In this document: positions 13,469 through 38,316 of the stretch, piece after piece
Numbering within the stretch: the stretch's first letter is position 1
Layout of the letters: each line of letters begins with the position of its first letter
IMG/VR virus record: IMGVR_UViG_3300037507_004165
Span: 1 to 64,000 of that record
DNA length: 64,000 nt
Direction: 5' to 3' (one strand)
DNA from: a virus
The notes under the pieces: generated by a model
Told to the model about the DNA's origin: nothing
The model's input: only the letters and a program-made list of their open reading frames with translations
The model's database searches: none
Translations under genes and position numbers: made by a program

Positions 13469-13943
13469 ATGACAATTCCAGCAAGTAATGCAGGCGGATC
13501 AAGAAAAGCGGCTAAACCAACGGTAGCTGCACGGTACTGCTAAGGCAACCGCAAACACTATAATAACAAACGCTGGTTTTGTTGTCGGCACTGTGACCCA
13601 AGAGTCCACGGATGATTCTGGAAATTTAGATAAAGTAAAGACTGCGTTAACAGATAATAGTGTTGTGCCACTAGGCCAATCAATTAACTATACTATTCAT
13701 AGTCCGTTCTTTCCTCCATTTTTTCCGCCATTTTTTCCTCCAGATTTTGCTGCCCCTCCATTTTTTCCTCCAGATTTTGCTGCCCCTCCATTTTTTCCGC
13801 CATTCTTCCCTCCAGAGTTCACGGCTCCACCACCCGTTTGGACATGTACAGCACTTGCAGCCGCAAACTACGCGTGCGCCGAATATCAGGTTGGCACATG
13901 CTCAGCGGCATTCTACGCTTTAGACAATAGTATTTGCGGATAG
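13469..13943 (+). CDS. PASTA-like protein with FFPP repeats, +1 frameshift at CGG
   Basis: From ATG 13469 the frame reaches CGG at 13532 after 21 codons and stops two codons later; skipping C13532 gives a 157-residue protein. Residues ~15-75 resemble a PASTA domain (NTIITNAGFVVGTVT ... GQSINYTI), a fold that binds peptidoglycan in other proteins. Then come FFPP units interrupted by two DFAAPP units and one EFTAPP unit, and a Cys-containing tail (four Cys in the last 33 residues). The paralogue at 23724-24152 has the same order without any frameshift and has an ordinary GGT at the aligned glycine. It directly follows a large fibre gene and may be an appendage tip. PASTA assignment is by eye. 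Confidence 0.75.
13532..13535 (+). other. +1 frameshift site 3, CGGT after GCA
   Basis: The frame reads GCA CGG TAC TGC TAA. Skipping C13532 gives GCA GGT ACT GCT AAG and restores VAAGTAKA. The paralogue at 23724 reads IAAGTAKA with plain GGT at that position, so one glycine-sized residue is expected here. Confidence 0.9.
13707..13836 (+). repeat. FFPP-coding repeat tract with DFAAPP insertions
   Basis: The tract encodes FFPP units and contains two perfect copies in tandem of a 30-base segment coding for FFPPDFAAPP. The near-perfect DNA identity suggests recent slippage or duplication. Confidence 0.85.
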
Positions 13944-21720: not shown

Positions 21721-23722
21721 ATGGCCCGTTTAAGATTTGAAACAGCACCAGAAATTACAATCAACGACGAGGCTGCAGTATTTAAAGCAGCAAACGGTGC
21801 TAGCGCTCCATTAGTAGAATTTAGAGCAGCCAACGGATCAGTAATGGCTAACATTGCTGCAAACGGCGTGCTTAACGTAACATCAGTAATTGCTTCAGTT
21901 GTGCGGAAACACATCTACAGATTTTGCTACAAGAGCATATGTAGATGAAGTCGCCACAGGAATTAAATCAAAACCAGCAGTAAGAGTAGCAACAACAGCA
22001 AACCTTGCTGGCACATACAATAACGGAACAGATGGCGTTGGTGCAACACTAACAGCTTCTTCAAACGGAGCATTCCCAACAATCGATGGTGTCGGTAGCT
22101 GGGTGCAGAACATGTCTATTCTACTTAAGAATCAAACTACAGCAGCACAAAACGGTAGATACGTTCTTACAACAGTCGGTGACGCATCCAATCCATGGGT
22201 TTTAACCAGGTGTGGTCTTTGTGATCAGGCTAGCGAAATCCCAGGCGCATACATATTCGTTTCTGGTGGAACAGAGAATGCTGGAAGAGGTTATGTCTTA
22301 ACAGTAACTAATCCAGATACATTTACTGTCGGAACAGATTCAATTATCGCAACTCAGTTTAGCGCAACTGGGGCATACGCAGCTGGTCTTGGTTTAACCC
22401 TTCTTGGCAATTCTTTCGCTGTTGGAACAGCAAATACAGCAAGAATTATCGTAAATGATGATAACATTGATCTTGCAACCGTAACACAAACAAATAGCAA
22501 CGGTGCAAACACAGTTAACTTTGTTGCCGCTGTAACAGTCGACAACTTTGGCCGTATAACTGGAACAGAAAAAGCAAATGTTTCATTTGCTGGTTACGCA
22601 ACAATCGAAAGCCCAACATTTACCGGAAACGTAACTATACCAGCCAACGCAAATATTTCTGGCTATGCGCTTTTAGCAAGCCCAACTTTTACAGGCACCC
22701 CAACAGCACCAACAGCAAATGCGGGAACCTCAAATGGACAAATTGCTACAACTCAATATGTAGATACGGCAGTAAGTTCATTGTCAGCAACAGCTGGAAA
22801 TACATATATCGAAAGTTCAATCATAGCCGCAAAGGGCGACCTAATCGTAGGAACAGCTAACGACACAGAGGCAATTCTTAGCGTCGGGACAAACGGATAC
22901 TTCTTAAAGGCCAACAGCTCAGCCGTAACTGGTCTTGAGTGGGCTGCAATTCCAACAATCAACGCCCTTGACGATGTTGGTGACGTAACAATTACAGGCA
23001 ACGCAACAAATCAATATCTTCAGTATAATGGTAGCGCCTGGGTCAATGCATCGATCCCAACAATAAATGCCCTAGATGACGTGGGTGATGTAACCATTAC
23101 ATCAGTTGCCACCAATCACCTATTAGCCTGGAATGGAACAGCCTGGGTAAATACTGGAAACCCAACAGTTCCAGGAAACCTTACTGTAACTGGAAACCTT
23201 ACAGTTCAAGGAAATACTACGACTGTTAATACAGCCGAACTTCATGTTTCAGATAATATTATCGTTTTGAATCATGATGTTACTGGATCCCCAACAGAAA
23301 ACGCTGGTGTTGAAGTTGAGCGCGGTACATCAACAAACGTTCTCATTCGCTGGAATGAAACAGACGATGTCTGGGAGTTCACAAATGACGGAACTACATA
23401 TCAGAGAATTACCAGCGATACAGTAACAAATGCCCAGACAGCCGCATACACACTTGTTTTGGGTGACAGATCAAAGATGGTTGAAATGAACGTAGCTTCA
23501 GGTCATAACCTAACTGTCCCAACAAATTCCAACGTAGCTTTCCCAGTAGGTACAACAATTACAGTTTTACAGACTGGAGCTGGCCAAACTACAATCGCTG
23601 CTCAAGGCGGAGTAACAGTGAATGCAACTCCTGGTCTTAAGTTACGCGCGCAGTGGTCTTCGGCTACGCTTATCAAGAGAGCTACAGATACATGGGTAGC
23701 ACTAGGAGATTTGGCAGCATAA
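21721..23722 (+). CDS. Tail fibre protein with +1 frameshift at CGG (about 666 residues)
   Basis: ATG 21721 follows ACAGGAGAAG. Codons 1-61 (ARLRFETAPEITINDEAAVFKAANGAS onward) run into CGG at 21904; the unshifted frame ends 14 codons later. Skipping C21904 gives VVGNTSTDFATRAYVDEVATGIKSKPAVRVATTANL, a widespread phage fibre block (coiled YVDEV followed by KPAVRVATT), which shows that both halves belong together. The rest has LDDVGDVTI..YNGSAWVN modules, an LTVTGNLTVQGNTTTVNT beta repeat and a C-terminus paralogous to that of the 9715 fibre. A PASTA-like/FFPP gene follows after one base. The annotated frame alone, starting after the shift, would lack the attachment domain. Confidence 0.83.
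21904..21907 (+). other. +1 frameshift site 5, CGGA after GTG
   Basis: The frame reads GTG CGG AAA CAC. Skipping C21904 gives GTG GGA AAC ACA TCT ACA and restores the conserved fibre block STDFATRAYVDEV. Confidence 0.88.
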
Positions 23723-23723
23723 T

Positions 23724-24152
23724 ATGACAACGAATACGCCAGAGCCAGGTAAAGGCAGTAAAAGAAAAAGAGCTAAGCCAACAATCGCTGCTGGTACAGC
23801 TAAAGCCGACGCAAACACAACAATAACAAATGCAGGCTTTACAGTTGGAACGGTTACTGGAGAAAGCACTCAAGTTGCTGCTGACCTAGATAAGGTTAAA
23901 ACTGCTGTAACAGATACTACTGTTACCCCATTGGGAACTGCAATTAACTATACTATTCACAGCCCATTTTTTCCACCTTACTTTCCACCTTACTTTCCGC
24001 CTTACTTTCCGCCGTATTTCCCGCCATTCTTTCCACCGTTCTTCCCACCGTTCTTCCCACCGTTCTTCCCGCCATTTTTCCCACCATTTTTCCCACCGTT
24101 CTTCCCACCATACTTCCCACCGGGATTCGGCGGACCGGTACCAGTCTTCTAA
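23724..24152 (+). CDS. PASTA-like protein with 13 (F/Y)FPP repeats
   Basis: The 142-residue product has a short basic start (GKGSKRKRAKP), a PASTA-like domain at about residues 22-75 (ANTTITNAGFTVGTVTGE, then VTPLGTAINYTIHS) and a C-terminal tail of 13 consecutive (F/Y)FPP units ending PGFGGPVPVF. PASTA domains in other proteins bind cell-wall peptidoglycan, and the stiff aromatic-proline tail could be a rod or tip. It starts one base after the 21721 fibre, parallel to the 9715/13469 pair. The regular PP dipeptides are attractive substrates for the prolyl-hydroxylase-like enzymes encoded next door; that is inference. Its paralogue at 13469 needs a frameshift, this one does not. Confidence 0.78.
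   Translation: MTTNTPEPGKGSKRKRAKPTIAAGTAKADANTTITNAGFTVGTVTGESTQVAADLDKVKTAVTDTTVTPLGTAINYTIHSPFFPPYFPPYFPPYFPPYFPPFFPPFFPPFFPPFFPPFFPPFFPPFFPPYFPPGFGGPVPVF
23967..24122 (+). repeat. 13 x 12-base (F/Y)FPP-coding repeat
   Basis: Exactly 156 bases made of 12-base units coding (F/Y)FPP: order F, Y x4, F x7, Y. Third positions vary among units, mainly in the proline codons, so it is not a perfect DNA repeat. Confidence 0.92.
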
Positions 24153-24231: not shown

Positions 24232-24840
24232 TTACAGGGATAGATAATCTACAGTAGATTCAGAACCTAGTTCGCCTTTTACAAAAATATTAAAAGCAAT
24301 AACTACTCTTTTTTCAGAAAATACTTTTGGAACTAAATGATATAAATGTGAAGGGAAAATAACTATTTTTCCAATTTCTAGATTTACACGAAAAAGATCA
24401 CTGTTTTCGCTTGCTTGACTTGAAGTTCTTAACTGTATTTGTGGAGTAAATTTTGGTCTTCTAAAAACAGTAAAATCTTCCTCTGAACCAGAAACATAAA
24501 TTATCCCACTAAACAAACTGTTCGGATGATAGTGTTCGTATTGATAACCATTTATCCCAGAAATAGTCACCCATGACTGGGTTATGTATGGTTGCACGTC
24601 AGCAATAGAAAGATCATTTAATATAAAAGTTGACATATGTTCTTCACAATTCTGTTTAAGAAAAGAAAGATTCTTATCATTAAGAACAAACTTATTATTA
24701 CTAAATGCATTGGATTGATAAAAAGTAGAGTCTTTTTCAAAGACTTCAATTGCAGATAATTCTTGGTTCGTAAAACTTCTACCAATATTGGAAATATAAA
24801 TTGGAGTCGGAAAGATATATTTTGTACCATTTTCAGACAT
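24232..24840 (-). CDS. 2OG-Fe(II) oxygenase-like protein (TIGR02466 type)
   Basis: The 202-residue protein starts YIFPTPIYISNIG, a start I associate with the TIGR02466 oxygenase family. It has the double-stranded beta-helix metal site: HYH at 103-105 (YEHYHPNSLFSG), a distal His in FPSHLYHLV (His165 or His168), and Arg178 in EKRVVIAFN for 2-oxoglutarate. The strand SGIIYVSGSEED matches the family core. Known relatives hydroxylate small molecules or peptide residues; the substrate is unknown here. It is the last gene of a four-gene minus-strand operon and overlaps the preceding gene by 8 bases. Confidence 0.75.
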   Translation of the reverse strand: MSENGTKYIFPTPIYISNIGRSFTNQELSAIEVFEKDSTFYQSNAFSNNKFVLNDKNLSFLKQNCEEHMSTFILNDLSIADVQPYITQSWVTISGINGYQYEHYHPNSLFSGIIYVSGSEEDFTVFRRPKFTPQIQLRTSSQASENSDLFRVNLEIGKIVIFPSHLYHLVPKVFSEKRVVIAFNIFVKGELGSESTVDYLSL

Positions 24841-25666
24841 TATCTATACTCCTAAAAAAAGATTCTGAATCAGAATAAGCCCAATATCTATTAAAAATTC
24901 TTTCACCAGAAAGAAATCCGCCCCTTACAGCGTGAATTATAGTGCTCAAATCTATTATAACTAAATCTCCTAAATTCCAATTTAACCAATAATTTTCGTC
25001 GTTGTCAAATTCATTAATTTTATTTTCAAACCATATTTTTATATCTGAAAAAATACTTATATCATTTTTCGATGGACTATTATCATCGTATAAAAGTAGA
25101 GAATCTTTTTCTGATTTAGGAGATAATTTAAGTATTTTTTCTCCGGTATTTCTGTGCACCCCAATTGCTGACCTAGCAAAAATGTTTGGCTTTACAATAA
25201 CTCCATTCACCGTATCATAGGTATTTTTTAGGGAATTAACTATTTTACATTTTGATAAAAAATCGACCCAATCTTTGTCCATTTGTTCTAATATATCTAT
25301 AGAGTTAATAAACCCAGTTTTTCCGCATTCGGAATCGCACACCATCTTCTGCATGTGCCAAGTACTGGCAATTTGTGGATCCGATTTATGGCAATTTTCC
25401 AAATGCCAAGGAATTAAAATTTCCCTAGAAGAACAAAACTTTTCGTTTCTTCCTATTGTAAAATTGTGATCTTCAGCATGAGGATTCGATATATAACCCC
25501 AATTTAATTTACTAGCAAAAGCCTCAGTTATTTGACCTTGTTGGTCGGGCTCCAAATTAATAGTCTTAAAAATAATAACTTTGTATTTCAAAAAAAGATC
25601 TACATATAAATCTATGTTTGAAATTATTTCTTCAAATTTACAATTATATATTTTTTTCAAAACCAT
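24833..25666 (-). CDS. TauD/TfdA-like dioxygenase with HxE-type motif
   Basis: A 277-residue protein with TauD-like layout: an early strand YKVIIFKTINLEPDQQ, the metal motif at IPWHLENCH (His88, Glu90 in place of the usual Asp), a following GKTGFINS strand, and the distal IDLSTIIHAVRGG with His245 and Arg256/Arg260 for 2-oxoglutarate. The family hydroxylates small molecules or free and carrier-bound amino acids. Glu instead of Asp is an accepted but less common ligand, so activity is plausible, not certain. It overlaps the next gene (24232-24840) by 8 bases in the minus-strand operon. Confidence 0.72.
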   Translation of the reverse strand: MVLKKIYNCKFEEIISNIDLYVDLFLKYKVIIFKTINLEPDQQGQITEAFASKLNWGYISNPHAEDHNFTIGRNEKFCSSREILIPWHLENCHKSDPQIASTWHMQKMVCDSECGKTGFINSIDILEQMDKDWVDFLSKCKIVNSLKNTYDTVNGVIVKPNIFARSAIGVHRNTGEKILKLSPKSEKDSLLLYDDNSPSKNDISIFSDIKIWFENKINEFDNDENYWLNWNLGDLVIIDLSTIIHAVRGGFLSGERIFNRYWAYSDSESFFRSIDNV

Positions 25667-25669
25667 ATT

Positions 25670-26290
25670 CTATAATAGTTCAGTTATAGTGTAAAATGAT
25701 GGGGTGGTAAATCTTTCGCCTCTAGTTACCATTTTTACTCCATGCAAATAATTGATATCTCCAGGATGTGCTACAGCAAGTCCTGGTTCAGGTTTTATCT
25801 CAATTTCATGTTGAGGATAATATAATTGTCCACCCTCAAAATCATCATTGTAGTAAATGAGGGAATTAAGGTCATATGTCGGAAACGGATTTGGTGATCC
25901 ATCATTGAGCTGCTTATCAGCATGAGGGCGTTGTTCTAAGCCAGGAAACCATCTTATTATAACTGGAGGACGAACGCTAAGCTTAACCCTAAATTCATCT
26001 TCAAGAAAATATTTCATTTTTAAGATATATTTGTCTATCAAATTATATATATCTAAATTTATTCTAGATAAAATGTCATAGCTGCACTGCCTATTTTGCC
26101 AGTAAGACGCATCGTATGTACAAGTTCCATCTTCAGCGTACTGGTTTTCTCCAGCATCCATCCATTCATTTATTGTTGGAAGAAAGTTTTGAATTTTTTT
26201 TAAATCTTCAAGATCAACAAAATTTTTTAATATCTTTATATTTTTTGGTGAGTTTCCAAAATATCCAGGCTCTATTAAAGACTTTTCCAC
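25670..26290 (-). CDS. Prolyl-4-hydroxylase-like 2OG-Fe(II) oxygenase
   Basis: The 206-residue product has the P4H core in its C-terminal half: HADK (His123, Asp125) after IIRWFPGLEQRP, the strand LNSLIYYNDDFEGGQLYYP, and YLHGVKMVTRGERFTTPSFY with His183 as distal ligand and Arg193 as the probable 2-oxoglutarate anchor. The FEGGQL block is diagnostic of the family. The N-terminal part (ILKNFVDLEDLKKIQNFLP) is the usual leading helix region. Expected reaction: hydroxylation of a peptide residue, often proline, with decarboxylation of 2-oxoglutarate. It is in the minus-strand operon, 6 bases from the next upstream gene. Confidence 0.84.
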   Translation of the reverse strand: MEKSLIEPGYFGNSPKNIKILKNFVDLEDLKKIQNFLPTINEWMDAGENQYAEDGTCTYDASYWQNRQCSYDILSRINLDIYNLIDKYILKMKYFLEDEFRVKLSVRPPVIIRWFPGLEQRPHADKQLNDGSPNPFPTYDLNSLIYYNDDFEGGQLYYPQHEIEIKPEPGLAVAHPGDINYLHGVKMVTRGERFTTPSFYTITELL

Positions 26291-26296
26291 AATTTG

Positions 26297-26944
26297 CTAC
26301 TCCTTTATGGACCAAAAATTAGAAGACATGTATCTTAATCCTGACGTAACTTTTTCTACCCTGTGAGTATATAGTTCATCAGAAGGAAAAATCAGCAACA
26401 TATTTGGTTGAGGTTTTATTTTAATGTTAAGTTTGGTAAAATGTAAGACGCCGCCCTCAAAGTCATTATTATAGTAGTATACAGAGCTGTAGTCTCTTGT
26501 GGGATGGCCAGAAGGGGTCTGCAAATACCTATTCATCCCATCAAAGTGAGTTGGTAAACCATCACCTGGGCTGTAAACAGTAACCCCAACCCCCTCTTCT
26601 TGCCAAACAGATTTATTGTATAAAATAGATATTAACTCAGATACTTTATGTAAAAAGTCATACTTTAATATACCTTCGGTTATTTCTGGAAATGTAAAAG
26701 AAATATTACTAGTAGGAAGAATAACATTTTCTCCTGTAGATGGATCTATTTTAGAGGAAAATTTATAATTGTCATCCTCACCCACAGAGTCATATTTAGT
26801 TACTGGGCACTTGAGCAAATGCTCGTAGAGTTTTTGAAATTTTTCATCATTCAAAAAGCTATTTATCTGATATAATTCTTCGCAGAGATTATTAGCTTTT
26901 AAATCGTGTTGCACTGGTGATGACATAGTGATATAGTATATCAT
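26297..26944 (-). CDS. Prolyl-4-hydroxylase-like 2OG-Fe(II) oxygenase
   Basis: The 215-residue protein shows THFDG (His133, Asp135), SVYYYNNDFEGGVLHF, a PQPNMLLIFPSDELYTHRVEKVTSGLRY block with His194 distal ligand and Arg204. It is the first gene of the four-gene minus-strand operon and is divergent from the 26978 oxygenase, with only 33 bases between. The start is not certain: ATG 26944 and ATG 26926 (MSSPVQHD) are both possible, and neither has a good Shine-Dalgarno box. The substrate is unknown. Confidence 0.84.
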   Translation of the reverse strand: MIYYITMSSPVQHDLKANNLCEELYQINSFLNDEKFQKLYEHLLKCPVTKYDSVGEDDNYKFSSKIDPSTGENVILPTSNISFTFPEITEGILKYDFLHKVSELISILYNKSVWQEEGVGVTVYSPGDGLPTHFDGMNRYLQTPSGHPTRDYSSVYYYNNDFEGGVLHFTKLNIKIKPQPNMLLIFPSDELYTHRVEKVTSGLRYMSSNFWSIKE

Positions 26945-26977
26945 AATGATTTACGGTAAAACTTTTTGAGGTAAAAA

Positions 26978-27610
26978 ATGGATTTTTATCATATTGGCGA
27001 TCCCAAGTTTGGCATGTTCTTATACAGAAATGCAATATCAAGAGATTTAAATATTCCAGAAAGACTTGAAGCTACTATAGGAAATAGCAGTCACCAGCTT
27101 TTTAAATGGTCAGACGCAGTTGTGGGTTACAACACAAAAATGCCAGACTATAGAGACTGTGTAGATTTAAAGATGAGTCCAGATCACTGGCCATATCTAA
27201 CTCCGGAGTTTGAAGAAATTAAAAAGTGCTATGATGATGTTGACTCTAGGCTCAAAAAGTGTTTAGAGCATTACGAGTCCATGTATAACTTTAAAATGGA
27301 TTATATGGAAGCTATAAATTTTGTTAGATATAAACCAGGTCAGCACTTTGCTGTTCATACAGACCATGGCTTCTCTTATACATGTACCGTCTCATCAGTG
27401 ATGTATTTAAATGATGAATATGAAGGTGGAGAATTGTGGTTTCCATATTTAGATATCACACTTAAGCCAAAAGCTGGTGACGTAGTATTATTTCCATCAA
27501 CTTACATATATGCCCACGCATCTCTTAAGGTAAAAAGCGGAATTAAGTATTCTGCAGTTACTATGTTTGATTATAACGATAATAATCACAAGAATCATTC
27601 AGTATATTAA
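26978..27610 (+). CDS. Prolyl-4-hydroxylase-like 2OG-Fe(II) oxygenase
   Basis: A 210-residue protein with a complete P4H motif set: NFVRYKPGQHFAVHTDHG (His127, Asp129), VMYLNDEYEGGELWFP, and GDVVLFPSTYIYAHASLKVKSGIKYS with His180 and Lys190, the 2-oxoglutarate-binding lysine of animal and viral prolyl-4-hydroxylases. The lysine makes this and 28274-28825 the closest to classical P4H; the others have Arg. It starts with ATG 26978 after a GAGG box and opens the plus-strand half of the island, followed by a glutathione-peroxidase-like gene. Confidence 0.87.
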   Translation: MDFYHIGDPKFGMFLYRNAISRDLNIPERLEATIGNSSHQLFKWSDAVVGYNTKMPDYRDCVDLKMSPDHWPYLTPEFEEIKKCYDDVDSRLKKCLEHYESMYNFKMDYMEAINFVRYKPGQHFAVHTDHGFSYTCTVSSVMYLNDEYEGGELWFPYLDITLKPKAGDVVLFPSTYIYAHASLKVKSGIKYSAVTMFDYNDNNHKNHSVY

Positions 27611-27639
27611 AACGCTGAATAAGCAGAAGGTCTAGGGAA

Positions 27640-28266
27640 ATGATAGACGAAAATTTAGAGACACCTTTTATTCAAGAATTTGAAGAATCAATATATGATA
27701 TTAAAGTAAACTCCTTAAACGGAGAAAAAGACATACTAAGCAAGTATAAGGGTAAAGTGACTATGATAGTTAATGTCACTGGAGAATGCGCAAATTCAGC
27801 CCAGTATCCGCTTATACAAGATTTATATCTTGACTATAAGGACAGGGGTTTCGAGGTGCTGGCGATACCAAGTACTGATTTCTGCGAATTTGCCTACGGA
27901 GAATTTGCTGATTCTGGAGCAAGTCCAGAAAATATGAAAAAGCACATGGAAAATCATTATGGAACATTTCTTCCATATTCCGAAATGATGACAATAAAAG
28001 AAGATCTAGAAAACGGCCTACAACCGCACTACCTTTATAGGGTGCTGCAAAGTGTCAATCAAGAGCGACTAAATAAAAATATTATAGATCTTCCAGTTCA
28101 GGGAAACTTTGAAAAATTTATAATTAATAAAACAGGTAAAAAAATGTTACGTTTCTGCAATTCAGATTTACTCAATTTAGCATTTGATGCAGGAAACAGA
28201 AAAACAAATTCAGATGTAGCTTTAGCCAGAATTAAAGAGGCAATAGAATTTTTCCTCGCAGAGTAG
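27640..28266 (+). CDS. Glutathione-peroxidase-like thioredoxin-fold protein
   Basis: The 208-residue protein follows the GPx plan: YDIKVNSLNGEKDILSKYKGKVTMIVNVTGECA, with Cys50 at the position of the peroxidatic Cys/Sec, then LYLDYKDRGFEVLAIPS. The family's NQF block, which carries the catalytic Gln, is replaced by STDFCEFAYGEF, so the catalytic tetrad is incomplete. It may be a redox protein or a non-enzymatic relative. A second GPx-like gene (29843-30460) keeps the Gln block but lacks the Cys. It is placed between two P4H-like genes, 7 bases before the next, suggesting an operon in which it handles peroxide or supports the oxygenases. Confidence 0.75.
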   Translation: MIDENLETPFIQEFEESIYDIKVNSLNGEKDILSKYKGKVTMIVNVTGECANSAQYPLIQDLYLDYKDRGFEVLAIPSTDFCEFAYGEFADSGASPENMKKHMENHYGTFLPYSEMMTIKEDLENGLQPHYLYRVLQSVNQERLNKNIIDLPVQGNFEKFIINKTGKKMLRFCNSDLLNLAFDAGNRKTNSDVALARIKEAIEFFLAE

Positions 28267-28273
28267 ATCTAAG

Positions 28274-28825
28274 ATGAATGATTTTATTACAATATATAAA
28301 TCAGCAATTGATAATGACACATGCGCCGAAATTGTAAACATGCTTGAAAAAGGCAAATGGAATAGATCTTTAGTTTACGATAATCAAAATCAAGATATGT
28401 TAAAAGCTGTCGAATCAGAAAGAAGAACGTGTGACGCTTTTGATAGAACTCAGTATCTATATCATAAAATATATTCAATGATAGATCCTATTATTTCTGA
28501 AAAATTATTTAATTACATAGATAAATTTGAAGTTGAATTAGCACAAAAACAAGAGATAGTTGGCTATAATATACTTAGGTATAAAGTCGGTCAACAGGCT
28601 GTTCTTCACTGCGATGATGGCATAGGGGTTCACAGAAGAGTGTCCAGTCTTCTTTACATCAATGAAGATTTTACCGGTGGTGAGTTATTTTTCGATAAAT
28701 TAAAAATAAAGTATTCACCTAAAGCTGGAGACATACTATTTTTTCCTTCATCATTTCCGTTTTCCCATGAAGCAAAAGCAGTACAAAGTGGAACAAAATA
28801 CTGCGTAGTTCGTTTTTGGAATTAG
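28274..28825 (+). CDS. Prolyl-4-hydroxylase-like 2OG-Fe(II) oxygenase
   Basis: The 183-residue protein is a compact P4H domain: NILRYKVGQQAVLHCDDG (His112, Asp114), SSLLYINEDFTGGELFF, and GDILFFPSSFPFSHEAKAVQSGTKYCVVRFW with His165 and Lys175. The lysine and the FTGGEL block are as in animal P4H. It begins 7 bases after the GPx-like gene. The C-terminus ends at the last core strand, so no extra domain is present. It probably hydroxylates a proline-containing peptide; the FFPP proteins are candidate substrates by proximity only. Confidence 0.87.
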   Translation: MNDFITIYKSAIDNDTCAEIVNMLEKGKWNRSLVYDNQNQDMLKAVESERRTCDAFDRTQYLYHKIYSMIDPIISEKLFNYIDKFEVELAQKQEIVGYNILRYKVGQQAVLHCDDGIGVHRRVSSLLYINEDFTGGELFFDKLKIKYSPKAGDILFFPSSFPFSHEAKAVQSGTKYCVVRFWN

Positions 28826-28852
28826 GCTATAAAAATGGTATAATGATTGTTC

Positions 28853-29557
28853 ATGACTAAAATTACTCTTACAAAAACTCACCAAAATCCACCAGAAATA
28901 AAGCAGTCCAGAATCAAAAGAGATTGGATGGACGACACCTACAACAAACATGCGTACCAGTGCCTACCGCTAACTGTTGCAAATGTGACTGGTTGGGAGC
29001 TTATTCTTCAACAAGATGTCGTTGTTCAATGGGATGGCGGCAATACTGTTCCAAGAGTTCTTGAGGGAGAAACCTTAAACGGAAGATCGATAGTCATGCC
29101 GAGCATTATTGGCATAATGTCATTTTCTACCGGTTGGGCGTTTCAAACCGAAGACAATTACAGTACCTGGATTGGAGGATCACCGAATTATTTTGTCGAT
29201 GGAGCGGTTCCATTGACAGCTCATATCCCTAGTTATTGGTGGCCAGATGAGTTTAATATGAACTGGAAAATTACAAAGGTGGGAGAACCTGTTATATTTC
29301 CAGCTGGCATGCCCTTTATGCACTTTACAATCTATCACAATACACTACTGCAGGATGTTGAGTTTCAGGTAGAAAATCTCTGGGACAAGCCAGAATTAAT
29401 GCAAGAGAGAATGAATTACAGCAACGCAAAAAGTAAAAAGTTGCAAGAGCAACCATGGACATGGATGAAGGGAATAAAAACTGGTTTAAATGAAAAAGGA
29501 GAAAGAATAGGTCCAACATTCAATGGACTTCCCTCACTTAAGGAACCAAATATATGA
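28853..29557 (+). CDS. DUF6065-like protein in the oxygenase island
   Basis: From ATG 28853 (a TTG six bases upstream is a poorer start) the product has about 234 residues. The segments RDWMDDTYNKHAYQCLPLTVANVTGWEL and VVVQWDGGNT are the pattern I associate with DUF6065, a family of unknown function found in phages and bacteria near oxygenases and glycosyltransferases. A cupin-like beta fold is likely (VGEPVIFPAGMPFMHFTIY). A TATAAT-like box lies just upstream. It overlaps the next gene by 4 bases. The family call is from memory of its motifs and is moderate. Confidence 0.65.
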   Translation: MTKITLTKTHQNPPEIKQSRIKRDWMDDTYNKHAYQCLPLTVANVTGWELILQQDVVVQWDGGNTVPRVLEGETLNGRSIVMPSIIGIMSFSTGWAFQTEDNYSTWIGGSPNYFVDGAVPLTAHIPSYWWPDEFNMNWKITKVGEPVIFPAGMPFMHFTIYHNTLLQDVEFQVENLWDKPELMQERMNYSNAKSKKLQEQPWTWMKGIKTGLNEKGERIGPTFNGLPSLKEPNI

Positions 29558-29850
29558 TGCATAACCTTGTTGGCATATGGAATTTAGATGTCAAATCACC
29601 GCTTGGTATTGATAAATACCAGTTATTTATATCAGAAACTATGACAGCAGCAATTGGTGAACAGAGAGGCAAGATGCAATTTGCAGACTTTCTTGTAAAA
29701 GATGACTCTTTTTTTATGAGTGGGTTTACTGAAACACCACTTAGGACAAATGTTTCTTTGCATGGGACTTTTGATGATAATAAGATTCTTGGTAAGATAG
29801 CAATAGACAACTACTGCCTGGTAGATTTTGAGGGCACAAAAAATGGATAA
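29554..29850 (+). CDS. Small beta-barrel-like protein, unknown
   Basis: A 98-residue protein starting MHNLVGIWNLDVKSPLGID, with repeated short beta strands and a GTFDDNKILGK turn near the C-terminus. The layout (GxWNLxVKSPLG ... TPLRTNVSLHGTFD) resembles small lipocalin-like or THAP4-like barrels, but I cannot name a family. It overlaps the previous gene by 4 bases and the next by 8, so it is translationally coupled in the oxygenase operon. Possible role: ligand binding. Confidence 0.6.
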   Translation: MMHNLVGIWNLDVKSPLGIDKYQLFISETMTAAIGEQRGKMQFADFLVKDDSFFMSGFTETPLRTNVSLHGTFDDNKILGKIAIDNYCLVDFEGTKNG

Positions 29851-30460
29851 TGTATACAACATAGGAATAAAATCAATTTCTGGAGAAGAAAACTTCTTAA
29901 GAAATTTTAATGGTAAAGTTACACTATTGGTTAATATATCAAGTAAATTTGGCTATACACCAAAATGTAGTCCACTTTGGTCCTATGCAAGAACAGCTAG
30001 GCAACTATGGCAACTTCAACAAATTCACGAAGAGTTTTATGATAGAGGATTTTCTGTTATTGGTTTTCCATGTAATCAGTTTGGAAAAATGGAGCCAGGT
30101 TCAAATAGTGAGATAAAAACTTTTTTAGAAACCAATTATCCATTTATGAACTTTCCAATATCAGAAAAAATAGATGTCAATGGAAAAGACGAACACCCAG
30201 TTTATTCCTTCTTAAAAGGAAAAGAAAAAAGAAACTACTCAGACACAACAGCAGATGGAACACAGGCAGCTAGTGATGGACAAAATTTGGCTGGCCAAGC
30301 AATAGCTAGAATACCTCATAATTATGAAAAGTTCTTGATCAGCAGAAATGGTATCATGGTTTCTAGATTTAACTGGCAAGACATGCCACTAGACGACGAG
30401 CCCAGAGTTATGGGCGCAAGTTGGACAATAAGAGAAGCAATAGATGAGGTCTTAGGGTAA
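29843..30460 (+). CDS. Glutathione-peroxidase-like protein lacking the peroxidatic cysteine
   Basis: From ATG 29843 (an upstream in-frame TTG at 29828 is weaker) the product has about 205 residues. GPx blocks are clear: VTLLVNISSKFGYTPKC, EEFYDRGFSVIGFPCNQFGKMEPGS and a C-terminal YEKFLISRNGIMVSRF. At the peroxidatic position, usually SKCG, it has Phe36 (SSKFG); a Cys follows at residue 42 and could substitute. The FPCNQF block with its Gln is kept. An insertion after the first block (SYARTARQLWQLQQ) is unusual. It begins within the end of the 29554 gene and precedes the largest P4H-like gene. Confidence 0.78.
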   Translation: MDNVYNIGIKSISGEENFLRNFNGKVTLLVNISSKFGYTPKCSPLWSYARTARQLWQLQQIHEEFYDRGFSVIGFPCNQFGKMEPGSNSEIKTFLETNYPFMNFPISEKIDVNGKDEHPVYSFLKGKEKRNYSDTTADGTQAASDGQNLAGQAIARIPHNYEKFLISRNGIMVSRFNWQDMPLDDEPRVMGASWTIREAIDEVLG

Positions 30461-30463
30461 ATC

Positions 30464-31600
30464 ATGACAAATACAGAAGTGAGAACAGAAGATCCATTTA
30501 AGGATATGAATCCTTTTCCGGTATCTCCAGAAATTACAGAAGAAATAATTAAAGAAATTGGCAACATCAAGTGCGAAGTTCTCGGTCCAGGTGTTGTTGT
30601 TTTCAGAAACGCATTTAACATTGATCAAAGTCTTATATTAAACTATATTGATAGCAAAGCTGAAGATGCTCATAAAATTCGATGGACCTATCATCAGATT
30701 GATGGTGTAACCTATGGGATAAATGAAGATGGATTTAGATACAGGATGGAAGAGGTTCCCTCTACGCCAATTAGACTGTTAGATCCCGTTAATTCAACAA
30801 CACCTGAATCAGTTAAAAACTTCTTTTTATACCTCGAAGATCAGATATACAAGTGCTTACTAAAATATATCGATCATTACCCTTTGATGATAGGCAGTAT
30901 TTGGTGGAAGACAAGGGGCCATATACTCAGATATGGAGATGGCGGAAGGCTAGGCTGCCACGCGGATAACGATACTAATTACAAGGTAACAAAAGGCGTA
31001 AGGTATATGCCGAGAGGAATGGTTGCATCACGCCAAACATGTGGTGCCCTCATTTATATGAATGATTGCGTGGATACTGAAGAAGAGCTTAATGGGAAAA
31101 ACTTTACTGGCGGAAACCTTAGGTTTGTCCATCTTGGCATTTCCTATAAACCTCAAAAAGGTGATATTATATTTTTTCCAACCAACTATGTTGCATCTCA
31201 TGATGTTGAAACAATGGGCAAAGGTGTCAGATACAGTTATTTAACATTTTTTGGGCAAGGAGCAGACGATATAAAAGCAGGAATAGTAGTAGTTGAAAAA
31301 AATAAAAGCAAGCAATGGTGTCCGCCAGTTTGGTTTGACAACATTTATGATGACTATGAAAAATACTGTAAATCAGAGTATTCTATTTATTCCGATGTAC
31401 AGGGAAATGGTGTGGAGCCAGGTTGGAACCCTGTATTTCAGGGCAGAGAGGTGGCGCAGTATGGCACTACGCACGATTCAGTCGAAATTGGGTCAATGCC
31501 AGATCCGGACACTTCTGAATTATTGCCTGCCAAAAATGATCAAGATAAAGAAGATATAATGGGCCCATGTGGAACAGAGCCCCAAAAAATAGGAGAGTGA
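30464..31600 (+). CDS. Long prolyl-4-hydroxylase-like oxygenase (378 residues)
   Basis: The protein has an N-terminal ~130-residue extension and a P4H core: GHILRYGDGGRLGCHADND (His166, Asp168), GALIYMNDCVDTEEELNGKNFTGGNL, and GDIIFFPTNYVASHDVETMGKGVRYSYLTFF with His256 and Arg266. The insertion between the first ligand and the FTGG block is larger than in the short P4H genes. The C-terminal ~100 residues are hydrophilic. It shares an N-terminal pattern (a short lead, FRNAF/FPSAI, YGINEDG/YAINRSG, then WWKTRGH/WWRTLGH) with the next three genes, so these four form one paralogous subfamily. It begins 3 bases after the GPx-like stop. Confidence 0.85.
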   Translation: MTNTEVRTEDPFKDMNPFPVSPEITEEIIKEIGNIKCEVLGPGVVVFRNAFNIDQSLILNYIDSKAEDAHKIRWTYHQIDGVTYGINEDGFRYRMEEVPSTPIRLLDPVNSTTPESVKNFFLYLEDQIYKCLLKYIDHYPLMIGSIWWKTRGHILRYGDGGRLGCHADNDTNYKVTKGVRYMPRGMVASRQTCGALIYMNDCVDTEEELNGKNFTGGNLRFVHLGISYKPQKGDIIFFPTNYVASHDVETMGKGVRYSYLTFFGQGADDIKAGIVVVEKNKSKQWCPPVWFDNIYDDYEKYCKSEYSIYSDVQGNGVEPGWNPVFQGREVAQYGTTHDSVEIGSMPDPDTSELLPAKNDQDKEDIMGPCGTEPQKIGE

Positions 31601-31601
31601 A

Positions 31602-32540
31602 ATGCTACCAGAACCAATTAATTATGGAATGGGAGTAGTTTGTTTTCCTAGTGCAATAGATGTTGATCAAGATCTTATAATCCCATATTTGGCTTCTTTA
31701 AAGCAAAAAGCTGTAGAAGAAGACTACACAATAGTCAAAGAAGAAGACGGAGCTTCATATGCAATCAACAGAAGCGGACATCGATTTTCTATCGATGACA
31801 TAGATAAGGCAGCAAGCCACATAATGAATTTTTTGGATGAAAATAGTCCAAAAGAACTTGTTTCATTTTTTGAAAAATGTGAAGAAACCTTTTATAACTG
31901 CTTGCTCAGATATATAGAAATATTTCCCATGATCTTGCCCAATATCTGGTGGAGAACACTTGGTCACGTTCTTGCTTACGGTCCAAATAGCGATATGGGA
32001 ATACATAATGATAATGATGTGAACTACCAGCCTGGTTTTGAGCCAGATCTACAACTGGCAACAAGGAATGTTTTAGGTGTTATTATATATTTGAATTCTT
32101 CAGTCCCTAATAAGGAAGATATTAAAAAGTATGAATATAATAATGGGGAAATTGTTTTTGAATATGCGAATGCAACTCATCATCCTAAGGCTGGTGATAT
32201 TCTTATGTTTCCATCGAATTATCTTGGAACTCATGAAATAAAACCTTGTCTTAATGGCAGTAGGTACGCATACATAGGATACTTTGCTCAGGGTTCATCA
32301 CACCCAGAAAGAGGAATTCATGTAATTCACGGAAACTTTCCAGCAGGAAAACAAGGCCAAGTTTGGATGGAAAATATAAGAGAAGACTACGCAAAGTACA
32401 TTATTTCCAAGTATAATATAGAAGACTTAAAATCAGTAAGAGATCCAAAGCTTATATCTCTTTTAAGGGGAACCATTAGAAGATATAATAGTTCTGGAAC
32501 AGAAAAAAATCTTCCGCATAAAAAGGAAAAAAATGATTGA
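31602..32540 (+). CDS. Prolyl-4-hydroxylase-like oxygenase, long subfamily
   Basis: A 312-residue paralogue of the neighbours: YAINRSGHRF near residue 53, WWRTLGHVLAYGPNSDMGIHNDND with His135 and Asp137, VIIYLNSS, and GDILMFPSNYLGTHEIKPCLNGSRYAYIG with His211 and Arg221. The FTGG block is replaced by YNNGEIVFEY, a divergent version. It starts one base after the 30464 gene's stop and overlaps the next gene by 8 bases. Function expected as 2OG-dependent hydroxylase; substrate unknown. Confidence 0.84.
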   Translation: MLPEPINYGMGVVCFPSAIDVDQDLIIPYLASLKQKAVEEDYTIVKEEDGASYAINRSGHRFSIDDIDKAASHIMNFLDENSPKELVSFFEKCEETFYNCLLRYIEIFPMILPNIWWRTLGHVLAYGPNSDMGIHNDNDVNYQPGFEPDLQLATRNVLGVIIYLNSSVPNKEDIKKYEYNNGEIVFEYANATHHPKAGDILMFPSNYLGTHEIKPCLNGSRYAYIGYFAQGSSHPERGIHVIHGNFPAGKQGQVWMENIREDYAKYIISKYNIEDLKSVRDPKLISLLRGTIRRYNSSGTEKNLPHKKEKND

Positions 32541-33402
32541 CAATAATGTTGAAGCAGATCATTTGGGTGGTGGAGTAATCGTATTTAGATCTGCACTTGA
32601 GCTTGATTGGGATTACATTCTTAATTTTTCCAGAAACGCAATCAATAAAGAAAAAGACGAAATGTATCAACCAGCAGTAAATCCAGAAACTGGTGTTGAA
32701 TGTTACATAAATAAAAGTGGATACTTTTTTAGCAAAGACAGTGTAGAGCAAATGCCCGGAAGAGGCTCTGCAATACACAGATATGCAGATGAAAAAATAA
32801 GAGAGATATTTGAATTTATTGAAGATTCAAAAGACAGGTATCTACTTAAATATTTTGAACTTTTTCCCCTAGCCGCCAAATGCGTATGGTGGAAGGTAAA
32901 AGGGCACATAGTTCAGTATAAAAAGGGTGTTTACTTAGGATCACACTCCGATATAAGTGCAGATTATGTTTATGACGTTTGGACGCCAACTGATCAGCTA
33001 GCAACAAGAAACACTATAAGTACAGTATTTTATTTAAATAATTGTGTAGATGAGGACTTAGTAAGCGATAACACATTCTCTGGTGGGCATCATTATTTTA
33101 ATTACCTAGATATAGACTTTGCCCCCACAAGGGGTGACATACTCTTCTTTCCGTCAAACTATATGGCTGGACATGAAGTTAAGCCGGTATCTGCTGGAGA
33201 AAGATACTCCTATCTTGGCTGGTATAGCCATGGCACTCCAAACAAAGAGGTTGGAGAATCAGTTACTGATCCAATAAAAAATCCTGAAATTTCTAAAACA
33301 TCTAGCAATCTCTACATGCCAAACCTGATGGAAGACTATAAAAAATTTCTTATAAGCAGAGGTTATGGAGAGCATTCAGAGCATTTTAGGATTATGAGAT
33401 AA
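32533..33402 (+). CDS. Prolyl-4-hydroxylase-like oxygenase, long subfamily
   Basis: The 289-residue protein has VECYINKSGYFFSKDS, VWWKVKGHIVQYKKGVYLGSHSD with His138 and Asp140, VFYLNNCVDEDLVSDNTFSGGHHYF and GDILFFPSNYMAGHEVKPVSAGERYSYLG with His214 and Arg224. All iron and 2-oxoglutarate ligands are therefore present. It overlaps the previous gene by 8 bases and is 2 bases from the next, within a tightly packed plus-strand operon. Confidence 0.85.
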   Translation: MIDNNVEADHLGGGVIVFRSALELDWDYILNFSRNAINKEKDEMYQPAVNPETGVECYINKSGYFFSKDSVEQMPGRGSAIHRYADEKIREIFEFIEDSKDRYLLKYFELFPLAAKCVWWKVKGHIVQYKKGVYLGSHSDISADYVYDVWTPTDQLATRNTISTVFYLNNCVDEDLVSDNTFSGGHHYFNYLDIDFAPTRGDILFFPSNYMAGHEVKPVSAGERYSYLGWYSHGTPNKEVGESVTDPIKNPEISKTSSNLYMPNLMEDYKKFLISRGYGEHSEHFRIMR

Positions 33403-33404
33403 TA

Positions 33405-34184
33405 ATGAAAATTACTGATATAGGAAGTGGTCTTTGCGTTATAGAGGATCTATTTAATGTAGATCCAAAGTTTACAATTGAGTATATAAACTTTCTAAGA
33501 AAATTAGAACAAGATACATTTACTTATGTAGAGGAAAATGGAAAAAAGTACGCCGTTAATAGAACAGGTTTTAAGTTTGATTTAGAGTCTGTTGCGATGG
33601 CTCCAGAAAGATTTATAGACCCATTATGTAAATCTTATGAGCAAAAACCAACTGAAGAACAGGTAAAATTAGTTCAAGATCTTGAGTCTTATCTCTATAA
33701 GGTTTTGGTTGAATACTGTAAGCTATACCCCGATGCCGCCACAGTTTGCTGGTGGAGAAGTCACGGTCATTTTGCAACCTATTCAAACGGACAAAGAATA
33801 GGGTCACATTGTGATGATCAAATTCCTTACGAAGAAAGTATGGGAGCTTCTAATGAGTATCCCAAACACGCAAAAGTAAGTATAAATATATATATGAATG
33901 ATTGTGTCGAAAGTGAAGACCAATTAGATGGAACAAATTTCACTGGTGGAGCGATAAGATTTAGGCACGCAAAATATGAGCACAAACCCAAAATGGGTAC
34001 CGCTGTCATCTACCCCGCAAACTACATAGGAACACATGAGGTTACGCCAGTTACTGGTGGAATAAGAGTAGCTTACTTGGGTTCTTTTCTTTACGGAAGC
34101 CCAGAAAACTCATCCCCAAATGATAGTAGAATTTGGATGAAAAATCTAAAAGAAGACTGCAATTTCTTTCAAAGAAAAATTTAA
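33405..34184 (+). CDS. Prolyl-4-hydroxylase-like oxygenase, long subfamily
   Basis: A 259-residue paralogue and the last gene of the island: YAVNRTGFKFD, WWRSHGHFATYSNGQRIGSHCDDQ with His135 and Asp137, INIYMNDCVESEDQLDGTNFTGGAI, and GTAVIYPANYIGTHEVTPVTGGIRVAYLG with His211 and Arg221. In the core strand GDIxFFPSNY is changed to GTAVIYPANY, a mild divergence. It is followed by a 65-base gap with a TACTATAT motif and then the tail-module genes, so the island ends here. Confidence 0.85.
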   Translation: MKITDIGSGLCVIEDLFNVDPKFTIEYINFLRKLEQDTFTYVEENGKKYAVNRTGFKFDLESVAMAPERFIDPLCKSYEQKPTEEQVKLVQDLESYLYKVLVEYCKLYPDAATVCWWRSHGHFATYSNGQRIGSHCDDQIPYEESMGASNEYPKHAKVSINIYMNDCVESEDQLDGTNFTGGAIRFRHAKYEHKPKMGTAVIYPANYIGTHEVTPVTGGIRVAYLGSFLYGSPENSSPNDSRIWMKNLKEDCNFFQRKI

Positions 34185-35867: not shown

Positions 35868-37481
35868 ATGCTTTTGACAAAACCATCGGACATTGCAACT
35901 ATACCTTTTGTATATAGATCTGGATATGACTATGTCGATCCAAATTCAAACATAAGGGTATTTTTGAGGAGAGGATTCAACTCTGGTGGTGCAACCATAC
36001 TTGGTCCTTTGGTCTTCAATATGGACCTAGCCTTATCTTCTACTCCGCAATACGAACAAATTTTTTCTGATACAAGTTCTATTTCTAGACAATCAATTGG
36101 TTCGTACATACTTAAGTTAAAAATACCAAATAATATATTTCCCGGTCAATATACCGTAGAAATATCCACTACTGTAAATTCGATATCTGACACAAAAGAA
36201 GTACCAATACAAGTTAAGGCCTCTGCGGCTTCTTCTGGTGATTGGAGTTCTGCTCCAAACTACGAAAATTATTCATTGGTAGACAAATCTGTTTCCTTAA
36301 ATGAAAGATCGAAGTACAAAGAAATTTCTCAATTTGAAACAAACAACATTCTCTTAATAGGTCATACAGATGCAATTGAACCGTACGGTATGCAGAAGAT
36401 AAGGTCAATACAGGAAGCAGTTGACATACTAAGAGCTGATTTTAATTCTCCTCTTCTCAGGGGAGTTTTCGATGCCTACAGTTGTGGGGCAAGAGATATA
36501 TACATTATGTCAGCTGGATACATGAGTGAGTATGTAGATAATGTATCTGAAAGAAATGCAAAAATATTTAAAGACAGCTTTAACAATACTTTTTCCTTTT
36601 ACGAAGCATACTATGACAGACTAGCTGAATGCTACACGCTAATTGAGCAGTATGAATTTATTGATATTATTGTTCCGCTAGAAGCATCAATCATAAACAC
36701 CGGCAATAAAAACTTTGCCAAACAGCTATCATTGGTTTGTGGAAGAATACAAGAAAATACTGGAGAAGTAACAATTGGAATAATCGGTTCAAGAAATCAG
36801 GGAATGAGTTCTTCAGATATTCAAACTCTTTTATCAACAAACTATGAAATACCATCAACAATTGATGGAAATGGATACATAACTAGAGATTATGGAAAGC
36901 ACATCATAATGATTTATGGAGAAGCAGTGTTTTCCCATAAGCAAATGCAAAGAACATACACATCGTCTGTAGCAGCAGCAGTTGCTGGCATGTTGAGCTC
37001 TACACAGGTTAATCTTGGGCTAAGCAAGCAAAGAATACCTTCAGCTTTATCAATACATGGAAATGAACCAAAGGTAAATGAAGTAAAAGCTTTGGAGCAG
37101 AAGGGTATAAACTGCGCTATCAGAGGTGGCAGATCAAGAAGATTTGTTGGTCCTTATGACGTGTATTTAAGTGGAGATTTAACTCAATCAATTAGCGAAA
37201 ACTTTAAAGATGCTTCAAACGTAAGACTGGCCGCAATGCTTATAGGCGAAGTCCAAGCAATAGGAAATAATGGTATAGGTAAATTCAACTATTCAAAAGT
37301 AATAGCAAAAGTAGAATCATTATTAGTTTACTTAAAGCAACTAGATATAGTCAGAGACTACGGGCTAGATGCTTATGCAGACAAAGACGAAAAAGGAAAG
37401 CTTTATTTTAACATAAACATAAAGTCTTCTAGAACTTTAAGAGATATATCTTTTAATATAGCTACAGGCAGAGGTGTCTAA
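35868..37481 (+). CDS. Tail sheath-like protein (second, larger copy)
   Basis: The 537-residue protein has an N-terminal beta domain (~1-120) and a sheath-like body: NNILLIGHTDAIEPYGM, IRSIQEAVDILRADFNSPLLRGVFDAY and the C-terminal region SNVRLAAMLIGEVQAIGNNGIGKFN ... ISFNIATGRGV. In sheath proteins the SIQEAVDILGxDSPL-type block and the LLRGV/GAxxIYI block form the core. A more canonical sheath gene follows at 38317-39573, so this may be a specialised sheath initiator, terminator or a second sheath. It overlaps the next gene by one base. Confidence 0.65.
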   Translation: MLLTKPSDIATIPFVYRSGYDYVDPNSNIRVFLRRGFNSGGATILGPLVFNMDLALSSTPQYEQIFSDTSSISRQSIGSYILKLKIPNNIFPGQYTVEISTTVNSISDTKEVPIQVKASAASSGDWSSAPNYENYSLVDKSVSLNERSKYKEISQFETNNILLIGHTDAIEPYGMQKIRSIQEAVDILRADFNSPLLRGVFDAYSCGARDIYIMSAGYMSEYVDNVSERNAKIFKDSFNNTFSFYEAYYDRLAECYTLIEQYEFIDIIVPLEASIINTGNKNFAKQLSLVCGRIQENTGEVTIGIIGSRNQGMSSSDIQTLLSTNYEIPSTIDGNGYITRDYGKHIIMIYGEAVFSHKQMQRTYTSSVAAAVAGMLSSTQVNLGLSKQRIPSALSIHGNEPKVNEVKALEQKGINCAIRGGRSRRFVGPYDVYLSGDLTQSISENFKDASNVRLAAMLIGEVQAIGNNGIGKFNYSKVIAKVESLLVYLKQLDIVRDYGLDAYADKDEKGKLYFNINIKSSRTLRDISFNIATGRGV

Positions 37482-38224: not shown

Positions 38225-38260
38225 TATCCATATTGTAGTTTGTTTTTAAGATTCATCCAT

Positions 38261-38268
38261 TACTATAA
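38261..38268 (+). promoter_or_regulatory. TACTATAA motif upstream of the sheath gene
   Basis: The motif is in the 92-base gap before the sheath gene, ending 49 bases before ATG 38317. A GGAGG box (38302-38306) is nearer the start. Confidence 0.3.
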
Positions 38269-38316
38269 CTACGAAGTAAAACTATAAATGTCGCTGCAAG
38301 CGGAGGTCAAAAGCTA

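What the first reader, a model, noticed from the sequence alone, without database searches (positions are those of the whole stretch)
24232..34184. Ten 2OG-Fe(II) oxygenase-like genes in one 10 kb phage island
Eight genes have P4H-type iron and 2-oxoglutarate ligands (HxD, distal His, Lys or Arg), one is TIGR02466-like and one TauD-like. Four of the P4H-like genes form a paralogous subfamily with a shared N-terminal domain and WWKTRGH-like block. Phages often carry one or two such genes, but this many in tandem, inside the late region, is unusual. Different copies could hydroxylate different residues or substrates.
Basis: partly seen in the sequence, partly recalled or inferred. Interest (0 to 1): 0.82.

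Follow-up and report, generated by a model that had tools for sequence, protein, structure and literature searches.

The report
Phage hydroxylase cluster beside proline-repeat protein
This aquatic phage carries ten oxygen-using hydroxylase genes next to a gene for a protein that ends in a strict Phe-Pro-Pro-(Phe/Tyr) repeat, and the same pairing recurs in nearly all of the uncultivated phages sampled here that carry the repeat, which suggests a phage system for chemically modifying its own adhesive tail proteins.

Summary
All ten genes belong to 2OG-Fe(II) oxygenase families: eight are P4H-like with HxD, distal His and Arg/Lys, one is PF13759-like with HxH, and one is TauD-like with HxE. They lie between tail-fibre and sheath genes. 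The rest of the 154-kb genome has four more. The island also holds two glutathione-peroxidase-fold genes, DUF6065 and a 98-aa gene. 'Many 2OG genes in one phage' is not unprecedented: cyanophage S-SCSM1 has 24, function uninvestigated.

What appears new is the partner. Directly upstream is a 142-aa protein ending in 13 FPP units ([FPP(Y/F)]n). Contigs picked only by a DNA pattern for such arrays carry PF13640 in 48 of 50 cases (median 6 copies), against 10 of 50 and 1 of 25 controls. Contigs picked by the P4H subfamily carry the array in 37 of 41 cases, against 0 of 50. Only 5 of the 50 contain this phage's capsid gene, so the pairing is probably not one lineage. The arrays are C-terminal, on PASTA or Fn3 proteins, about 450 bp from a 2OG gene. 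Catalytic ligands are invariant in about 780 homologues.

Best explanation (0.62): the cluster hydroxylates the FPP repeat of a virion adhesin. Modification itself is unshown.

The parts
23724..24152 (+). FPP-repeat protein, 142 aa: N-terminal PASTA-like domain, C-terminal [FPP(Y/F)]n array of 13 FPP units; proposed substrate
   Evidence: sequence; N-terminus homologous to a PASTA-scoring FPP protein; the window protein itself gets no Pfam hit
13593..13943 (+). second FPP-repeat protein of the genome, 116 aa, less regular array, same PLGxxINYTIHSPFFPP junction
24232..24840 (-). 2OG-FeII_Oxy_5 / TIGR02466-like; HxH (H103, H105) and H168, R178
   Evidence: PF13759 2.5e-16; PDB 2rg4 and 3bvc relatives
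24833..25666 (-). TauD-like 2OG oxygenase, HxE (H88, E90), H245, R256
   Evidence: PF02668 5e-11
25670..26290 (-). short P4H-like (A2 group), H123xD125, H183, R193
   Evidence: PF13640 6.8e-5, below cut-off; PHROG 61 5.4e-14
26297..26944 (-). short P4H-like (A2), H133xD135, H194, R204
   Evidence: PF13640 6.3e-13
26978..27610 (+). short P4H-like (A2), H127xD129, H180, K190
   Evidence: PF13640 9.6e-13
27640..28266 (+). glutathione-peroxidase-fold protein that keeps a Cys in the motif (NVTGECAN)
   Evidence: PF00255 1.6e-14
28274..28825 (+). short P4H-like (A2), H112xD114, H165, K175
   Evidence: PF13640 1.6e-12
28847..29557 (+). DUF6065, the usual companion of FPP and P4H genes; predicted beta fold with weak dUTPase similarity
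   Evidence: PF19541 3.5e-44; AF2 pLDDT 90; Foldseek E about 6e-5; present in 40/50 FPP contigs
29554..29850 (+). 98-aa conserved unknown protein (its family is found in 59 of the analysed loci, this window included)
   Evidence: no Pfam or PHROG hit; family 5
29828..30460 (+). glutathione-peroxidase-fold protein with the catalytic Cys replaced (SKFGYxPxC); directly 5' of the first long P4H
   Evidence: PF00255 4.6e-30
30464..31600 (+). long P4H-like paralogue A1a, H166xD168, H246, R256
   Evidence: PF13640 1.4e-9; AF2 pLDDT 84, best PDB matches mostly protein prolyl hydroxylases
31602..32540 (+). long P4H-like paralogue A1b, H135xD137, H211, R221
   Evidence: PF13640 1.1e-7
32533..33402 (+). 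long P4H-like paralogue A1c, H138xD140, H214, R224
   Evidence: PF13640 2e-11
33405..34184 (+). long P4H-like paralogue A1d, H135xD137, H211, R221
   Evidence: PF13640 1.7e-9

Best explanation
The island is a virion-protein modification cassette. The P4H-like enzymes, with other 2OG oxygenases, hydroxylate prolines (perhaps also other residues) in the Phe-Pro-Pro-(Phe/Tyr) array at the C-terminus of a PASTA- or Fn3-anchored virion adhesin made from the same late region. Several paralogues would act on different prolines, ring positions or stages of one repetitive substrate. The modified array would be a stiffer, more polar, sticky polyproline-like tail used for host or surface binding. The Cys-less GPx-fold protein encoded next to the first long P4H may be a non-redox partner subunit, comparable to PDI in animal collagen P4H. 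Shown: family membership, intact ligands, a P4H-type predicted fold for one enzyme, and a specific association with FPP arrays that probably crosses lineages. Inferred: the substrate, the residues modified, incorporation into virions, the partner role and the adhesive role.
For: FPP-selected contigs of at least 15 kb: 48/50 have PF13640, 294 copies, 12.5 per 100 kb; collagen-like-selected contigs: 10/50, 21 copies, 0.87 per 100 kb; Fisher p 9e-16. Second control 1/25. Reverse: 37/41 contigs selected by the long P4H carry an FPP array against 0/50 controls. The FPP gene lies a median 446 bp from the nearest 2OG gene, on its 3' side in 69/73. Only 5/50 FPP contigs have this phage's capsid, so common descent of the whole phage does not easily explain the link. 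FPP arrays are rare in 84,980 cellular species genomes: 18 stretches, several of the multi-unit ones apparently phage contigs in MAGs. Ligands invariant in A1 (340 HxD, 335 His/Arg) and A2 (440 HxD, 438 His, 437 Arg/Lys) homologues. Nearest solved relatives by sequence and fold are mainly protein prolyl hydroxylases, including PBCV-1 vCPH and algal P4H bound to (Ser-Pro)5. Precedent: a characterised viral P4H and its peptide substrates (Eriksson 1999, cited in PMC12333218).
Against: No biochemical or mass-spectrometric data. The long subfamily is far from characterised P4Hs by sequence (best PDB E-value 0.0067). Ten enzymes for one repeat is more than seems needed. Co-localisation could mean only shared late expression and joint transfer. 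Two FPP contigs lack PF13640 (G006, G009), and cyanophage S-SCSM1 has 24 2OG genes with no FPP array, so multi-2OG sets do not require FPP. Control contigs are not matched for environment or phage type.
Confidence: 0.62

Rival explanations
1. The enzymes modify other virion proteins (for example the neighbouring 610-aa tail fibre) or host proteins such as EF-Tu, and the FPP protein is only a neighbour in a mobile adhesion module.
For: B. anthracis and P. putida P4H structures linked to EF-Tu are among the best fold matches. In cyanophages 2OG genes also lie beside tail-fibre genes without FPP. Tail-fibre relatives accompany the cluster in 110 of the analysed loci.
Against: Selecting on the FPP repeat alone recovers 2OG genes, usually several, in 48/50 contigs, which a chance neighbour would not explain.
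Confidence: 0.18
2. The 2OG genes make or tailor a small molecule, glycan or lipid (surface decoration or natural product) together with the PhyH, halogenase, carbamoyltransferase and glycosyltransferase genes elsewhere in the genome.
For: Trp_halogenase, carbamoyltransferase, PhyH, Asp hydroxylase and glycosyltransferase genes at 118-136 kb; TauD and PhyH members usually act on small molecules (general knowledge).
Against: The nearest solved relatives of the P4H-like majority act mainly on peptides. No carrier protein, synthetase or other pathway enzyme was seen in the island itself.
Confidence: 0.1
3. Auxiliary metabolic genes that lower host 2-oxoglutarate and shift nitrogen or energy metabolism, as proposed for cyanophages.
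For: Proposed in the literature (PMC9602691).
Against: Does not predict diverse paralogues, late structural position, or the tight link with one repeat protein.
Confidence: 0.05
4. Neutral amplification: duplicated 2OG genes retained without specific function.
For: Paralogues in tandem.
Against: Ligands invariant in hundreds of homologues and a conserved gene order across many loci.
Confidence: 0.03

Closest known systems
PBCV-1 viral prolyl 4-hydroxylase (vP4H/vCPH, PDB 5c5t)
   Same: Virus-encoded P4H fold; characterised together with peptide substrates; [quoted passage not shown]
   Different: One enzyme in a eukaryotic algal virus; here many paralogues in bacteriophages, an FPP(F/Y) array, and DUF6065 and GPx-fold companions
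Cyanophage 2OG-Fe(II) oxygenases (S-SCSM1 with 24, others 1-5)
   Same: Pfam families PF13640, PF13759 and PF05721; sometimes beside tail-fibre genes
   Different: No FPP array in S-SCSM1; tblastn with DUF6065 or the second long paralogue found no cultured phage
Animal collagen prolyl 4-hydroxylase (alpha2beta2 with PDI) and P3H1
   Same: 2OG prolyl hydroxylase fold acting on proline-rich repeats; PDI is a thioredoxin-fold partner (general knowledge)
   Different: The possible partner here is GPx-like and its physical interaction is untested; the repeat is FPP(F/Y), not GXY
Bacterial P4H of Bacillus anthracis (3itq, 5hv0)
   Same: Best solved match of the short group by sequence and of the modelled long gene by fold
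   Different: Single cellular gene; different substrate context

Membership tests
2OG-Fe(II) oxygenase superfamily (PF13640, P4H type) | Profile match over the curated cut-off | tested here: met
   7 of 8 P4H-like genes over cut-off; 25670-26290 below it but PHROG 61 at 5.4e-14
2OG-Fe(II) oxygenase superfamily (PF13640, P4H type) | HxD, distal His and Arg/Lys ligands | tested here: met
   8/8 in the island and invariant in homologues
2OG-Fe(II) oxygenase superfamily (PF13640, P4H type) | Double-stranded beta-helix fold | tested here: met
   One gene only (30464-31600) modelled, pLDDT 84; best PDB matches mostly prolyl hydroxylases, TM normalised by target about 0.5-0.65
Protein prolyl hydroxylase | Hydroxylates peptidyl proline | not testable with these tools
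   Needs enzyme assay or mass spectrometry; only fold and sequence kinship shown
2OG-FeII_Oxy_5 / TIGR02466 (24232-24840) | Profile match | tested here: met
   PF13759 2.5e-16; TIGR02466 itself was not scanned
2OG-FeII_Oxy_5 / TIGR02466 (24232-24840) | Canonical HxD/E carboxylate ligand of 2OG oxygenases | tested here: not met
   HxH (H103, H105) at that place; whether HxH is family-wide was not tested
TauD/TfdA (24833-25666) | Profile match and HxD/E, H, R ligands | tested here: met
   PF02668 5e-11; HxE, H245, R256
Glutathione peroxidase (29828-30460) | Catalytic Cys/Sec | tested here: not met
   Phe in its place; F/A/Y/S in 33/33 parsed homologues of this type
Glutathione peroxidase (27640-28266) | Catalytic Cys/Sec | tested here: inconclusive
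   Cys present (NVTGECAN) but the rest of the motif is atypical
PASTA domain (FPP protein 23724-24152) | Profile match | tested here: inconclusive
   No direct Pfam hit; homologous N-terminus of the L336 protein hits PASTA at 7.5e-10
Virion protein (FPP protein) | Found in particles | not testable with these tools
   Position between tail-fibre and sheath genes only

The most novel reading that the evidence does not exclude
A widespread, previously undescribed bacteriophage system builds a post-translationally hydroxylated [FPP(F/Y)]n polymer tail on virion adhesins: a viral counterpart of collagen, extensin or mussel-glue proteins, made by many dedicated prolyl (and possibly aromatic) hydroxylases with a Cys-less GPx-fold partner and DUF6065.
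Probability: 0.45. Interest if true: 0.92.

Novelty: new variant of a known kind. Interest (0 to 1): 0.8.

Why it matters
2OG oxygenases are common phage genes whose purpose has not been specifically investigated (PMC9602691). This association names a concrete candidate substrate in many uncultivated phages and makes the question directly testable by mass spectrometry and co-expression. If right, protein hydroxylation is a routine part of adhesin maturation in these phages, and [FPP(F/Y)]n is a new class of modified biopolymer.

Tried and rejected
Nucleotide search of the region and tblastn of the second long paralogue and DUF6065 in cultured phages: no match. tblastn of the FPP protein: no match, though the low-complexity filter makes this uninformative. 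Collagen-like repeats as substrate in this window: none found. Literature searches for DUF6065, for the FPP repeat, and for phage prolyl hydroxylase with tail fibre: nothing relevant. DUF6065 as another 2OG or cupin enzyme: not supported, the fold search points weakly to dUTPase. Host assignment: the best capsid and portal relatives are Bacillus, Moorella and Acinetobacter phages at about 25-45% identity, too distant to name a host. The capsid scan kept only relatives above 90% identity and did not break the lineage confound; the capsid search in FPP contigs was more useful.
Full report
Observation. Eight are P4H-like (PF13640) with HxD, distal His and, ten residues on, Arg or Lys. One is PF13759-like with HxH in place of HxD, and one is TauD-like with HxE. 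Four of the eight form a long subfamily (A1) sharing an N-terminal region and a WW(K/R)xxGH block; four are short (A2). The island sits in a late region: portal 226-1851, capsid 5444-6505, tail fibre 21890-23722, sheath-like 35868-39573. The finding does not mention four interspersed genes: two GPx-fold genes, DUF6065 and a 98-aa unknown. The window is part of a 154,137-base virus record. Outside the window it encodes a TauD, an Asp/Asn hydroxylase, a PhyH and a fifth A1 gene, the last again preceded by a GPx-fold gene. So the genome has at least 14 such genes.

The partner. Directly before the island, 23724-24152 encodes a 142-aa protein ending in FPPY x4, FPPF x7, FPPY, FPPG. A second, less regular one lies at 13593-13943. 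In related loci the arrays are almost strictly four-residue periodic: Phe before Pro-Pro in 1,778 of about 1,818 cases, then Phe 1,262, Tyr 437, His 93, Trp 22. They are C-terminal: a median of 7 residues follows the last unit (near-identical loci included). The N-terminal part is PASTA-like (PF03793 7.5e-10 in a homologue) or Fn3 (1.9e-11); the window protein is homologous to the PASTA-scoring one but scores no Pfam hit itself.

Is the pairing more than chance? Contigs were chosen only by a DNA pattern for FPP(F/Y)FPP(F/Y)FPP. Of 50 with at least 15 kb, 48 carry PF13640, 294 copies in all, 12.5 per 100 kb. Of 50 contigs of similar length chosen by a collagen-like pattern, 10 do, 21 copies, 0.87 per 100 kb (Fisher p 9e-16). 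A second, small control set gives 1 of 25, though many of its contigs are short. In the other direction, 37 of 41 contigs chosen by the A1 enzymes carry the array, against 0 of 50 controls. In FPP-pattern loci the nearest 2OG gene is a median 446 bp away and on the 3' side in 69 of 73. Only 5 of the 50 FPP contigs contain this phage's capsid protein (most contigs are fragments, but several above 80 kb lack it), and DUF6065 homologues from the loci fall to about 23-30% identity. Kinship of the whole phages therefore does not easily explain the link. In 84,980 cellular species genomes the pattern occurs in 18 stretches. Contigs with multi-unit FPP proteins of the phage type (L336, L341, L348, and L349) look like phage DNA in MAGs; others are single matches or unrelated proteins.

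Conserved cluster. Across 80 A1-selected loci a common order is FPP gene, short P4Hs, GPx-fold gene, DUF6065, further genes, 98-aa gene, GPx-fold gene, A1a-A1b-A1c-A1d. Other phages add a further PF13640-like family (73 loci), a 247-aa unknown (68 loci) and other companions between DUF6065 and the 98-aa gene; these are not in this window's island. DUF6065 is in 40 of 50 FPP contigs. GPx-fold genes come in two kinds: one keeps a Cys and often precedes DUF6065; in the other the catalytic Cys is Phe, Ala, Tyr or Ser in 33 of 33 parsed cases, and all 33 lie directly before an A1 gene. That recalls PDI as partner of collagen P4H, but no interaction was tested.

Enzymes. Ligands are invariant: A1, 340 HxD and 335 His and Arg; A2, 440 HxD, 438 His, 437 Arg/Lys (homologues include near duplicates). 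The A2 profile best matches Bacillus anthracis P4H (6.1e-12) and also human P3H1. A model of A1a (pLDDT 84) matches mainly protein prolyl hydroxylases: B. anthracis, PBCV-1 vCPH, algal P4H with (Ser-Pro)5, collagen P4H, PHD2 and P. putida P4H with EF-Tu. DUF6065 is modelled well (pLDDT 90) and weakly resembles dUTPase.

Interpretation. The simplest account is that the cluster hydroxylates the FPP array. Shown: families, intact active sites, P4H-type fold for one enzyme, conserved clustering and the FPP association in both directions. Inferred: that FPP is the substrate, which atoms are modified, that the protein is in the virion, and the adhesive or stiffening role. The main rivals are modification of another virion or host protein, and small-molecule or glycan tailoring.

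Known precedents. Cyanophage S-SCSM1 has 24 2OG genes whose functions are uninvestigated, while other T4-like cyanophages have 1 to 5 (PMC9602691), so the number alone is not new. Seven of the S-SCSM1 genes flank a short tail fibre with an RQPR/RAPFNFR repeat region, and in S-CAM7 a P4H lies near a collagen-like protein: hints of a wider pattern. In PBCV-1 a viral P4H and its peptide substrates were characterised (Eriksson 1999, seen as a citation in PMC12333218). The bacteriophage FPP system, its many paralogues and its DUF6065 and GPx-fold companions were not found in the literature library, which holds open-licence papers only.

Noticed in passing
window 13593-13943 (+): Second FPP-repeat protein with a Cys-containing tail, after a 1250-aa ORF and far from the 2OG island.
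   Followed up: partly
L012:4252-12192 (genome 128252-136192): Stretch with Trp_halogenase, carbamoyltransferase, Asp/Asn hydroxylase, PhyH, a fifth A1 P4H and a GPx-fold gene: possibly a second modification locus.
   Followed up: partly
L011:14814-16935 (genome 118814-120935): TauD-like oxygenase followed by two glycosyltransferase-like genes (Gly_transf_sug/Caps_synth and TOD1/MUCI70).
   Followed up: no
L351:4081-5346 (MK867354.2): Cyanophage S-SCSM1 short tail fibre carries an RQPR/RAPFNFR repeat insert and has 2OG genes on both sides.
   Followed up: partly
L356:2032-9282 (MT586120.1): Cyanophage S-CAM7: putative prolyl 4-hydroxylase near a 1546-aa collagen-like (GPx) protein.
   Followed up: no
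window 28847-29557 (DUF6065): The DUF6065 model weakly resembles dUTPase (E about 6e-5), a possible clue for this family of unknown function.
   Followed up: partly
L336, L341, L348: FPP-repeat proteins of phage type inside bacterial MAG contigs (Verrucomicrobiales, Gammaproteobacteria), probably binned phage DNA.
   Followed up: partly
L011:17640-20000 and L012:1-1968 (genome 121640-125968): 1442-aa protein with signal-peptide-like start and Thr/Pro linkers, resembling a bacterial surface protein.
   Followed up: no
window 55908-64000, continuing to genome 66491: Single 3527-aa plus-strand ORF running off the window.
   Followed up: no
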